From the NCBI GenBank assembly GCA_021767985.1, contig JAASSH010000119.1, positions 1-6,760 of the forward strand: a stretch of 6,760 nt of DNA. The letters run 5' to 3'. The position numbers and the translations under genes were made by a program. Source of the stretch: Gammaproteobacteria bacterium. Lineage in GTDB: Bacteria; Pseudomonadota; Gammaproteobacteria; GCA-001735895. Under the pieces are notes generated by a model. It had not been told where the DNA came from. It saw only the letters and a list, made by a program, of their open reading frames with translations, and did not search any database. This document shows, piece by piece, positions 1,693 to 6,760 of the stretch; within the stretch, counting starts at the first letter, position 1; each line of letters begins with the position of its first letter.

Positions 1693-1911
1693 GTGAATGA
1701 TTCACTTCTGGCCAGGCTGGAGCGTCTCGAGACGCTCTACAGCGAGCAGGAATACACCGTCCAGGCACTAAACGACGTGGTCGCGAACCAGGATCGCGAG
1801 ATTACCAGGCTTACGCTCGCCATCGAGCGACTCGAGGAACAGCTCAAGGCGCTCAGGACCGAAACCTCCAGCGACATTAGCTCCGAAATCGAGAAGCCCC
1901 CGCATTATTGA
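1693..1911 (+). CDS. slyX: SlyX family protein
   Basis: Short coiled-coil protein of the SlyX family, whose molecular function is unknown. With a GTG start it is 72 aa, the same length as E. coli SlyX. Heptad-like leucine/isoleucine spacing runs from LLARLERLETLYSEQEYTVQ to ITRLTLAIERLEEQLKAL, consistent with a dimeric coiled coil. The C-terminus ends in P-P-H-Y, which is the family signature. The stop overlaps the rsmJ ATG (TGATG), so the pair is probably co-translated. It lies divergent from rsd and may share its control region. Confidence 0.9.
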   Translation: MNDSLLARLERLETLYSEQEYTVQALNDVVANQDREITRLTLAIERLEEQLKALRTETSSDISSEIEKPPHY

Positions 1912-2612
1912 TGAATCCACGCGCCCCTCTCGCCCGGGATACCCTGCCTGTGCTCGCGCGCGAGGCGCCGGTCGAACTCGAAATCGAGACCGACGACGAC
2001 GGTGTCGTTATCCGCCTGCCACTGGCGCCCCTGTCTTGTCATCACAGCTTTACCAGCGGCGCACTCGCCAGGCGCGCCAGGCAATCGAAGCAGGCTTTAC
2101 TCAGGGCCTGTAACAATAAAGCGCGCAGTATCCGCCAGGTGCTCGATCTGACCGCCGGCTGGGGCGCGGATAGCCTGACCCTCGCCTGCCATGGACAACA
2201 GGTTACGCTGCTGGAGCAGAACCGGCTGATCTGCGCCATCCTCGATTATTCGCTGCAATGCCTGTCGCGCGAGTCGAACAGTAGCGAGGTCGCCGACCGT
2301 ATGCAACTCGTGCAGGCCGAGGCCGGCGCGTACCTGCGCCAGCTTGCCGACGATCACGCGTTCGACTGTATCTATCTCGATCCGATGTTTCCGAACCACA
2401 AATCCAGCGCCAAGCCCGCCAAGGAAATGCAAATACTGCAGGCGCTAACCAGCAACCTGGATATCGAATCCTGCTTCGACCTGGCGCTGCAAAAAGCTCG
2501 CAAACGCGTCGTGGTCAAACGGCCGGCAAAGGCGCCCGATCTGACCGCCGTCAAACCCGACGTCGTTTACCGTGAAAAAACAATTCGTTTTGACGTCTAC
2601 CTGACCGGCTAG
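1911..2612 (+). CDS. rsmJ: 16S rRNA (guanine-1516-N2) methyltransferase RsmJ
   Basis: SAM-dependent methyltransferase that makes m2G1516 in 16S rRNA of the small ribosomal subunit; cytoplasmic. The protein is 233 aa (E. coli about 250). Visible motifs are the SAM-binding motif I V-L-D-L-T-A-G-W-G-A-D-S (77-88); the acidic end of the second strand, L-L-E-Q-N (100-104), which would contact the ribose; the catalytic motif Y-L-D-P-M-F-P (155-161); K-E-M (171-173); and V-V-V-K-R-P (200-205). All match E. coli RsmJ/YhiQ closely. The N-terminal 40 residues are the more variable substrate-recognition part. I chose the ATG at 1911, which overlaps the slyX stop, over the TTG one codon earlier. No separate ribosome site is evident, suggesting reinitiation from slyX. 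The next gene, yajQ, is convergent with a 51-base gap holding no clear terminator. Confidence 0.95.
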   Translation: MNPRAPLARDTLPVLAREAPVELEIETDDDGVVIRLPLAPLSCHHSFTSGALARRARQSKQALLRACNNKARSIRQVLDLTAGWGADSLTLACHGQQVTLLEQNRLICAILDYSLQCLSRESNSSEVADRMQLVQAEAGAYLRQLADDHAFDCIYLDPMFPNHKSSAKPAKEMQILQALTSNLDIESCFDLALQKARKRVVVKRPAKAPDLTAVKPDVVYREKTIRFDVYLTG

Positions 2613-2663: not shown

Positions 2664-3146
2664 TTAATCCCGGAAATTGTTGAACTGCAGCGGGATTCCA
2701 AGCCCGGCCCCGCGCAGGTTTTGCATGACTTGCTGCAGGTCGTCGCGCTTTTTGCCGGTGACCCGGAGCTGCTCACCCTGGATCGCGGCCTGTACCTTGA
2801 GCTTGCTGTCCTTGATCAGTTTGACCATCTTGCGCGCCAGATCCCGGTCCAGCCCCTCGCGCACGGTTACCGGCTGGCGCGCGCGCTTGTTCATCTCGAC
2901 AATATCGCCGAACTCGAGACAGTCGACATCGATACCGCGCTTCGACATTTTCTCCTTGAGTATGGGCGCCATTTGCTTGACCTGGAATTCCGACTCGGCT
3001 TCCAGGGTTAACTGGTTGCCGGCCTGCTCGATACGGGCATTCGAGCCCTTGAAATCGTAACGGGTGCCGATTTCGCGATTCGCCTGGTCGAGCGCGTTAC
3101 TCAACTCGTGGTGATCGACTTCGGAGACAACATCGAATGAAGGCAT
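2664..3146 (-). CDS. yajQ: YajQ family nucleotide (cyclic di-GMP)-binding protein
   Basis: Cytoplasmic protein with two ferredoxin-like (RRM-resembling) domains. A Xanthomonas homologue binds cyclic di-GMP and acts with a transcription factor; other work shows nucleotide binding. The precise role here is unknown. It is 160 aa, close to the E. coli length of about 163. Signatures are M-P-S-F-D-V-V-S-E-V-D at the N-terminus, R-Y-D-F-K (29-33), K-L-I-K-D-S-K-L-K-V-Q-A-A-I-Q-G (109-124), V-T-G-K-K-R-D-D-L-Q (129-138) and the C-terminal Q-F-N-N-F-R-D. An AGGA ribosome site is 7 bases before the ATG. The start is 13 bases after the stop of the Rieske-like gene, so it is likely the last gene of the ligA-led operon. 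Confidence 0.95.
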   Translation of the reverse strand: MPSFDVVSEVDHHELSNALDQANREIGTRYDFKGSNARIEQAGNQLTLEAESEFQVKQMAPILKEKMSKRGIDVDCLEFGDIVEMNKRARQPVTVREGLDRDLARKMVKLIKDSKLKVQAAIQGEQLRVTGKKRDDLQQVMQNLRGAGLGIPLQFNNFRD

Positions 3147-3159
3147 ATTACTGTCCTGC

Positions 3160-3768
3160 TCAGGGTCTGATTGTTAAGGTACTGAAATCAGCGGCAAAAT
3201 TATAATCCGGAACATCCAGATTCGGAAACTTCTTTGCGCCCTTCAGCGCCCTGCCGGCAAAATCGTAGCGCGCTGAACCGCAGACTTCCCCGAGTTCCTT
3301 ACCGAAAGCCTCAACCAGGCAGCCAAGATCGGTGCCGATTGCGTAGCTCACAAAATACCTGGGATGCCTCGAGCGCAGGGGATTTCGCGCGAATTCAGGT
3401 TGCCGGCTGCCATCGGACCCCGGGTCCTGCAGATTACTCCCGGAACTCTCCAGTGCGGCAATGGTCTGGTCGGAACGCCGGATCACCAGTATCGCCAGGT
3501 TGTCCCGACGTAATATTTCGACTCGATCGACAGCGAGTTCGCGCAGGCTAAAGCGGTAGGATTCCTGAATACCGGAGGGACGGATATCTATCGCGAAATC
3601 GAGCAGGGTGTAAAGGCATGCGACGACAATAAAGGCGGCGCAGTACCTGATCAAAGTTAACAGTAACTTTCTTCTTGCTAAACTCACTTGTGATGCTCGC
3701 AGTGTCAGCCACTGAAGCCGGCCGACAGCCAGGCTGACCGGTATCTGCCGGGCAGGCGCTGCGGCCAC
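3160..3768 (-). CDS. Membrane-anchored Rieske-like protein lacking the [2Fe-2S] ligands
   Basis: I know no named gene for this. After a basic N-terminus with a twin-arginine-like stretch (A-R-R-K-L-L-L, 31-37), one hydrophobic helix spans about 39-60. An ectodomain follows that would be periplasmic. Residues 131-200 follow the Rieske pattern: F-V-S-Y-A-I-G-T-D-L-G-C (139-150) aligns with box I (CTHLGC), and G-E-V-C-G-S-A-R-Y-D-F-A-G-R (160-173) with box II (CPCHGSxYDxAGR). Then come A-L-K-G (174-177) and N-L-D-V-P-D-Y (183-189), as in bc1 Rieske subunits. The cluster-binding Cys and His of box I are Gly145 and Asp147; those of box II are absent (Glu161 and Gly164 in a gap-free alignment). Cys150 and Cys163 sit where the structural disulfide forms. 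So a Rieske fold without a cluster is inferred. The start is uncertain: GTG 3768 is the longest, GTG 3687 (175 aa) is also possible, and neither has a clear ribosome site. Downstream yajQ is 13 bases away. Confidence 0.75.
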   Translation of the reverse strand: MAAAPARQIPVSLAVGRLQWLTLRASQVSLARRKLLLTLIRYCAAFIVVACLYTLLDFAIDIRPSGIQESYRFSLRELAVDRVEILRRDNLAILVIRRSDQTIAALESSGSNLQDPGSDGSRQPEFARNPLRSRHPRYFVSYAIGTDLGCLVEAFGKELGEVCGSARYDFAGRALKGAKKFPNLDVPDYNFAADFSTLTIRP

Positions 3769-3793: not shown

Positions 3794-4114
3794 TTAACCG
3801 AGTACGACTGCCTCGCCGGCCTGCTCGCTGCAGTAGCGACCCAGGCAACTGAACAGCTCCTCGCCGCTTCCCTGCAGGCGCCAGCACTCTTCGGCGGCAT
3901 CGTAATCGAAATGATAGCCGCCCGAACGTGCCGCAACCCAGATCTGGGTCAGCGGCGCCTGCTTGTTGACAATGATCTGGCTGCCGTCGGCAAATTCCAG
4001 CGTCAGGATACCGCCCGCGTTATCGTAGTCGATATCGACACCGCAATCTTCGATCGCCTCCTCGATGGCGACCATGGTGTCCTCGGCAATCTGGTCGAAA
4101 TCGGACTCATTCAT
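3794..4114 (-). CDS. cyaY: Frataxin-like iron donor CyaY
   Basis: Bacterial frataxin: binds iron and interacts with the IscS cysteine desulfurase to modulate Fe-S cluster assembly in the cytoplasm. It is 106 aa, exactly the E. coli length. The first helix carries the acidic iron-binding ridge (Glu3, Asp5, Asp7, Glu11, Asp12, Glu18, Glu19, Glu22, Asp23). The sheet has L-T-L-E-F-A-D-G-S-Q-I-I-V-N-K-Q (37-52), Q-I-W-V-A (58-62) with the conserved Trp60, and G-G-Y-H-F-D (65-70), all diagnostic. The ATG at 4114 was chosen because the 28 residues of an upstream in-frame extension are arginine/serine-rich shadow sequence lying inside msrB. The start overlaps the msrB stop by 8 bases (ATGAATGA), with a GAGG ribosome site 9 bases upstream. 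Confidence 0.95.
   Translation of the reverse strand: MNESDFDQIAEDTMVAIEEAIEDCGVDIDYDNAGGILTLEFADGSQIIVNKQAPLTQIWVAARSGGYHFDYDAAEECWRLQGSGEELFSCLGRYCSEQAGEAVVLG

Positions 4115-4491: not shown

Positions 4492-4499
<8 letters not shown>
4107..4499 (-). CDS. msrB: Peptide-methionine (R)-S-oxide reductase MsrB
   Basis: Reduces the R-epimer of methionine sulfoxide in proteins, usually with thioredoxin as electron donor; no signal peptide, so cytoplasmic. It is 130 aa from the ATG at 4499. Visible features are E-E-Y-R-V-C-R (14-20), the zinc site Cys43/Cys46 and Cys92/Cys95, S-G-S-G-W-P-S-F (59-66), H-L-G-H-V-F-D-D-G-P (98-107) and the catalytic Cys116 in R-Y-C-I-N-S. Many MsrB proteins have a resolving Cys in the SGCGWPSF position; here it is Ser, so the sulfenic acid must be reduced directly or through another Cys. 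The start overlaps the upstream gene by 8 bases (ATGAATGA). Confidence 0.96.

Positions 4500-6760
<2,261 letters not shown>

What the first reader, a model, noticed from the sequence alone, without database searches (positions are those of the whole stretch)
3160..3768. Rieske-fold membrane protein that has lost the cluster ligands but kept the disulfide cysteines
The C-terminal 70 residues align along their length with bc1-type Rieske domains: box I, box II, YDxAGR, a KG, and NLxVPxY. Box I reads GTDLGC instead of CTHLGC (codons 3319-3336), so both ligands (Cys and His) are replaced while the second Cys, which normally forms the disulfide, stays. In box II (codons 3274-3288) a gap-free alignment gives E-V-C-G-S for C-P-C-H-G: again both ligands are lost and only the disulfide Cys remains. 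With a one-residue gap, the Cys would instead fall at the His position, so this part is less certain. The frame is intact, with no stops or frameshifts, and the gene is spaced like a functional operon member. A conserved cluster-less Rieske protein would be a non-redox assembly, sensing or structural factor; I know of no described function for one.
Basis: partly seen in the sequence, partly recalled or inferred. Interest (0 to 1): 0.75.

Follow-up and report, generated by a model that had tools for sequence, protein, structure and literature searches.

The report
Redox-dead twin of Rieske protein
Many Gammaproteobacteria keep a second copy of the Rieske electron carrier that has lost at least three of the four residues that normally hold its iron-sulfur cluster but kept its two disulfide cysteines, and because three relatives in which no cytochrome bc1 complex was found lack it too, it likely serves that respiratory complex without carrying electrons.

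The parts
3160..3687 (-). gene of the ligandless Rieske-like protein (RLP), 175 aa, GTG start
   Evidence: open frame; the closest homologues have the same length and begin here
3589..3681 (-). N-terminal helix, residues 3-33, predicted membrane anchor
   Evidence: AlphaFold2 helix 3-33; aligns together with the head to PetA of 8smr over residues 1-175
3319..3336 (-). box I GTDLGC (canonical CTHLGC): ligands Cys and His replaced by Gly and Asp, disulfide Cys123 kept
3274..3288 (-). box II E-V-C-G-S (canonical C-P-C-H-G): ligands Cys and His replaced by Glu and Gly, disulfide Cys136 kept
2664..3146 (-). yajQ, next gene downstream, 13 bp away; part of the conserved locus
   Evidence: PF04461 and NF003819; synteny
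3794..4114 (-). cyaY (frataxin), upstream, 106 bp from the RLP start; part of the conserved locus
   Evidence: TIGR03421; synteny
1908..2612 (+). rsmJ, convergent neighbour of the yajQ/RLP block; part of the conserved locus in the distant families
   Evidence: NF008012, 104 bits, below cut-off; synteny

Best explanation
The gene encodes a paralogue of the cytochrome bc1 Rieske subunit that has lost all four [2Fe-2S] ligands and kept the two disulfide cysteines, and it likely acts as a non-redox assembly, placeholder or structural factor of the bc1 complex. Shown: sequence, one branch apart from PetA, selection, conserved locus, a petA-range second match in all 56 near-complete carriers. Predicted: the Rieske fold and the anchor helix. 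Inferred: the helix holds the head on the periplasmic side; without a cluster it would not need the Tat route and could be inserted by Sec, with a Cys123-Cys136 disulfide standing in for the cluster as the clamp between the two loops. Inferred: it would bind the cytochrome b/c1 core, or PetA itself, through the shared head surface. It would not shuttle electrons, in line with the lost alanine-rich hinge and Pro loop.
Against: No interaction was tested. The gene is not in the petABC operon. Four RLP carriers show no bc1 gene in the searches made: G002 (88% complete) and G226 (86%) lack petA, PF00032 and PF02167; G695 (77%) and G711 (74%) lack petA and PF02167, PF00032 not searched. I put this down to incompleteness, but G009, which I count as a loss, is no more complete (87%); only G008 and G011 are firm losses. 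bc1 occurs without RLP in G039 and G040, whose locus is intact without the gene, and six of the 48 genomes of another order show only a petA-range match (two of them read as canonical petA), so RLP is not essential to bc1. With two or three co-losses the sign test gives p 0.5 and could not reach 0.05. The RLP anchor is more hydrophobic than PetA's (median hydropathy 2.22 against 1.81), so it may not fill PetA's place in the membrane. The window's own N-terminus still reads ARRKLLL, which resembles a Tat motif, so the Sec route is uncertain here.
Confidence: 0.45

Rival explanations
1. The former cluster pocket became a new polar site that binds a metal ion or small ligand; RLP is a periplasmic sensor or carrier of that ligand.
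For: The ex-ligand positions are not random: Cys2 is Glu or Asp in 231 of 242 rows; in the 71 rows outside the window's own group, Arg at the old box II His (38 rows) always comes with Asp at the old box I His, and acid tends to sit at one His position or the other. A Zn ion can occupy the pocket of PetA in place of the cluster (PMC10492824, abstract start and passages).
Against: Rows are related and partly duplicated, so the pairing may reflect few events; 13 of the 71 rows have no acid at either position and 3 have it at both. A salt bridge that merely closes the empty pocket explains the pattern as well. It does not predict co-loss with bc1.
Confidence: 0.16
2. The invariant cysteine pair is a redox-active thiol-disulfide switch that senses the periplasmic or quinone redox state.
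For: The two Cys are among only five columns invariant in 25 divergent RLPs; msrB lies nearby in the window.
Against: The same two Cys are invariant when 21 canonical PetA rows are added (94-row alignment), and in canonical Rieske protein they form a disulfide that stabilises the cluster (PMC3119413, passages). msrB was not seen in the loci of the distant families.
Confidence: 0.13
3. RLP works with CyaY (frataxin) in building the Fe-S cluster of PetA or other proteins.
For: cyaY is the immediate upstream neighbour in the window and in its family.
Against: RLP's head is inferred to lie in the periplasm while CyaY and cluster insertion are cytoplasmic (established knowledge). In the distant families RLP sits by rsmJ or yajQ, with cyaY on the other strand or not seen at the locus. 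cyaY stays at the locus where RLP is missing (G009, G011, G039, G040).
Confidence: 0.05
4. A decaying petA copy or sequencing error.
For: Loss of all four ligands is what decay could start with.
Against: Open frames, dN/dS 0.17-0.39, one branch of 40 divergent sequences, and both Cys kept in 187 of 187 counted.
Confidence: 0.01

Closest known systems
PetA, bc1-type Rieske subunit (TIGR01416, PF00355)
   Same: predicted fold, N-terminal anchor helix, disulfide Cys pair, YDxAGR, the LxDPxS..QP..N..RS stretch, NLxVPxY
   Different: no cluster ligands, no Pro-Ala-Pro loop, no alanine-rich hinge, twin arginines mostly absent, gene not in petABC
TEF5/PSB33/LIL8 of plastids (PMC12164590, passages and abstract seen)
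   Same: membrane-bound Rieske-like domain without the residues for a cluster or iron; the tef5 mutant is impaired in assembly of photosystem II
   Different: C-terminal membrane helices, green lineage only, acts on photosystem II; sequence kinship with RLP not tested
NirD, small subunit of nitrite reductase (recalled; no call)
   Same: Rieske fold without cluster, as recalled
   Different: soluble and cytoplasmic, as recalled; not compared here
Zn-bound form of T. tepidum PetA, 7yr9 (PMC10492824, passages seen)
   Same: closest solved structure, Rieske head without the 2Fe-2S cluster, disulfide formed
   Different: it has all ligands and is a putative maturation state of the normal subunit

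Membership tests
bc1-type Rieske iron-sulfur proteins (PetA) | Rieske fold with membrane anchor | tested here: met
bc1-type Rieske iron-sulfur proteins (PetA) | four ligands C-x-H ... C-x-x-H | tested here: not met
   window 0 of 4; 0 of 187 relatives with either Cys ligand or the box II His, 12 of 187 with the box I His
bc1-type Rieske iron-sulfur proteins (PetA) | disulfide cysteine pair | tested here: met
   187 of 187 counted; the bond itself not tested
bc1-type Rieske iron-sulfur proteins (PetA) | curated profile cut-off | tested here: not met
   window: TIGR01416 48.3 bits against 97.4; no Pfam match in any of 25 RLPs
bc1-type Rieske iron-sulfur proteins (PetA) | Pro-Ala-Pro loop over the cluster | tested here: not met
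   0 of 186 RLPs, 71 of 73 canonical
bc1-type Rieske iron-sulfur proteins (PetA) | twin-arginine (Tat) signal anchor | tested here: inconclusive
   RR before the helix in 42 of 187 RLPs against 69 of 74 canonical; the window's own protein reads ARRKLLL
bc1-type Rieske iron-sulfur proteins (PetA) | gene in petABC operon | tested here: not met
   locus is cyaY/yajQ/rsmJ; the canonical petA-petB lies elsewhere
Ligandless Rieske-like assembly factors (TEF5/PSB33) | Rieske-like domain without ligands, membrane-bound | tested here: met
   sequence and prediction; definition from PMC12164590
Ligandless Rieske-like assembly factors (TEF5/PSB33) | C-terminal membrane helices | tested here: not met
   the only membrane-length helix is residues 3-33
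Ligandless Rieske-like assembly factors (TEF5/PSB33) | role in assembly of a membrane electron-transport complex | not testable with these tools
   only co-occurrence and co-loss with bc1

The most novel reading that the evidence does not exclude
A bacterial respiratory complex has its own redox-dead decoy: a pseudo-Rieske subunit that docks on the cytochrome b/c1 core where the real Rieske head would sit, acting as an assembly placeholder or brake, a pseudo-electron-carrier comparable to a pseudoenzyme.
Probability: 0.25. Interest if true: 0.87.

Novelty: new variant of a known kind. Interest (0 to 1): 0.7.

Why it matters
In bc1 complexes the Rieske fold is known as the holder of the cluster. 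A family that has kept the fold and its cysteine pair in seven Gammaproteobacterial families, with the cluster site gone, points to a second, non-redox job for this fold in bacteria with bc1. It would give a genetic handle on how bacterial bc1 is assembled or regulated. It also exposes a misannotation: 23 of the 120 listed homologues carry the source name 'ubiquinol-cytochrome c reductase iron-sulfur subunit', so counting Rieske subunits by annotation overstates functional ones.

Tried and rejected
Rejected: pseudogene or sequencing error. The one-residue gap in box II. CyaY partnership as the main reading. The Paraglaciecola hit (L013) is canonical petA, not a member. L067/L040 (G396) scores like a distant member but reads CTFDGC ... 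CPCCGS, a different paralogue.

Limits. Score alone does not separate family members from canonical PetA: in the order of G297, members score down to about 133 bits (109 for one cut by its contig end) while in the class draw canonical-range matches reach 145. So 14 of 369 class genomes is a lower bound; in the phylum draw only the window's own genome of 299 had a match above 134 bits, and that draw was not read sequence by sequence. In 'second match' was counted from the tables, not read one by one. Protein lists were capped: one search lists 120 of 325, one search lists 120 of 281. Eight proteins were set aside before the counts: P0205 and P0232 (near-canonical), P0224, P0265-P0269 (far or intermediate; P0269 lacks the two-cysteine pattern); P0224 and P0265 were kept in the tree. 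The 243 rows hold some proteins twice (as P and as locus); one (L179) is cut by its contig end and was not scored. The first AlphaFold2 model had 21 canonical PetA rows and P0224 in its alignment; it was repeated without them. The Fisher values use rounded counts and an assumed share of synonymous sites.

Literature: the listings of searches showed no account of this bacterial family; only open-licence PubMed Central papers are held, and most listed papers were seen as titles and abstract starts only. Seen as passages: PMC12164590 (also abstract and section list), PMC3119413, PMC3623810, PMC10492824. NirD is recalled only.

Full report
What is there. The window carries yciB, yciI, rsd, slyX, rsmJ, yajQ, the gene in question, cyaY, msrB, a small membrane protein gene and ligA (ligA was named from its sequence by recall, not scanned). 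The gene in question, here called RLP (Rieske-like protein, my name), is on the minus strand at 3160-3687. Its stop lies 13 bp before the yajQ start. Box I reads GTDLGC (3319-3336) and box II E-V-C-G-S (3274-3288), as stated.

Ligands and disulfide. In 120 of 120 listed homologues both disulfide cysteines are present; the box I His position is Asp in 115, Glu 2, Asn 2, His 1; the first box II position is Glu in all. In the 187 ligandless proteins counted from three searches (eight set aside) both Cys are present, no Cys ligand and no box II His is present, and 12 keep the box I His. With locus proteins added, 242 of 243 rows could be scored: 0 Cys1, 14 His1, 0 Cys2, 0 His2. No scored row keeps more than one ligand. 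In the distant families box II is often D-x-C-R-G-S-R-Y-D, a canonical box with Cys to Asp and His to Arg, which fixes the gap-free alignment. Among 25 divergent members only five columns are invariant, two of them these cysteines. In canonical Rieske protein the same two cysteines form a disulfide (yeast Cys164-Cys180, PMC3119413, passages).

Other features that go with the cluster are gone too. The Pro-Ala-Pro loop is in 0 of 186 RLPs and 71 of 73 canonical proteins; a twin arginine stands before the helix in 42 of 187 against 69 of 74; an alanine-rich hinge motif is in 0 of 187 against 48 of 74. PetA of Shewanella is Tat-exported, with its signal as anchor (PMC3623810, passages). The window's own protein still has ARRKLLL, so the export route is open.

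Origin and spread. A tree of 40 RLPs and 37 PetAs with the four ligand columns removed puts all RLPs on one side of a branch with 100/99 support. RLP is in 34 of 41 genomes of the window's order as held (all one family; two of the 34, G027 and G035, are seen only in part or in pieces, and G035 was read whole), in 14 of 369 genomes drawn from the class, in seven families (a lower bound), and in 40 of 48 genomes of another order by reading the sequence. In the window's family the order is cyaY-RLP-yajQ-rsmJ. In that other order 38 of 38 loci have rsmJ within 3 kb. Of the 11 loci first fetched from six other families, 10 lie near rsmJ, yajQ or cyaY, the exception being Ectothiorhodospiraceae bacterium 2226. 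This is what vertical descent from an old duplicate would give. dN/dS is 0.17-0.39 in seven distinct close pairs.

Link with bc1. The window's genome (71% complete) has a canonical petA-petB with CTHLGC and CPCHGS. Of RLP carriers at least 90% complete, 56 of 56 have a second match in the petA range. Seven carriers without one are 74-88% complete; cytochrome b or c1 was still found in G015, G024 and G036; G002 and G226 showed neither; G695 and G711 showed no cytochrome c1 and were not searched for cytochrome b. Three genomes of the window's genus, G008, G009 and G011 (98, 87, 97% complete), show no petA, cytochrome b or cytochrome c1 but do have haem-copper oxidases, and none has RLP. In G009 and G011 cyaY and yajQ lie side by side without RLP; in G008 the stretch upstream of yajQ has no RLP. 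On a tree of six housekeeping proteins bc1 was lost three times (two on starred branches) and RLP went each time. G009 is no more complete than G002, so only G008 and G011 are firm. Against the link, G039 and G040 keep bc1 and lack RLP at an intact locus, and six genomes of the other order show only a petA-range match. So RLP seems to need bc1, not the reverse. The number of events is too small for a significant sign test (p 0.5).

How it probably works (inferred). RLP would be a membrane-anchored, periplasmic Rieske head clamped by its disulfide, with nothing to carry electrons. It would bind the bc1 core or PetA in assembly, as a placeholder, or as a structural extra subunit. The published precedent is TEF5/PSB33, a membrane-bound Rieske-like protein lacking the cluster ligands; the tef5 mutant is impaired in photosystem II assembly (PMC12164590). 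Whether RLP's anchor fits PetA's place is doubtful, as it is more hydrophobic. A new polar site in the old cluster pocket is a real rival: 38 of 38 rows with Arg at the old box II His have Asp at the old box I His, though a closing salt bridge would do the same.

Verdict. The observation and its interpretation hold. It is a new variant of a known kind: a ligandless, disulfide-keeping Rieske paralogue family in Gammaproteobacteria. I saw no description of it in the listings of nine literature searches.

Noticed in passing
P0224 (172 aa): Groups with canonical PetA apart from the other ligandless proteins (97/89): aligned, it reads CEIRRC and CTCGSS, so both Cys ligands and both disulfide Cys are kept while both His ligands are lost, perhaps an intermediate form.
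   Followed up: partly
L067:5767-6387 (G396): A Rieske paralogue with box I CTFDGC and box II CPCCGS, both His ligands replaced, the second by Cys; it might bind a different Fe-S site.
   Followed up: no
P0266 (329 aa): A ligandless Rieske-like domain that keeps both cysteines, with a C-terminal stretch that looks like ankyrin repeats (by eye, no search).
   Followed up: no
window 4492-4851 minus: A 119-aa membrane protein gene (by eye) between ligA and msrB with no Pfam or NCBIfam match; a homologue lies next to ligA in all loci of the window's family that hold ligA.
   Followed up: no
homologues: 23 of the 120 listed members carry the source name 'ubiquinol-cytochrome c reductase iron-sulfur subunit' although they lack the usual cluster ligands.
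   Followed up: partly
L126, L127, L128 (G011, G009, G008): Members of the window's genus in which no bc1 gene was found while haem-copper oxidases remain.
   Followed up: partly
L168, L169, L171, L172, L177, L178 (order of G297): A sub-group with GTG(M/A)GC and D-x-C-D: the acid sits at the old box II His instead of the old box I His.
   Followed up: partly
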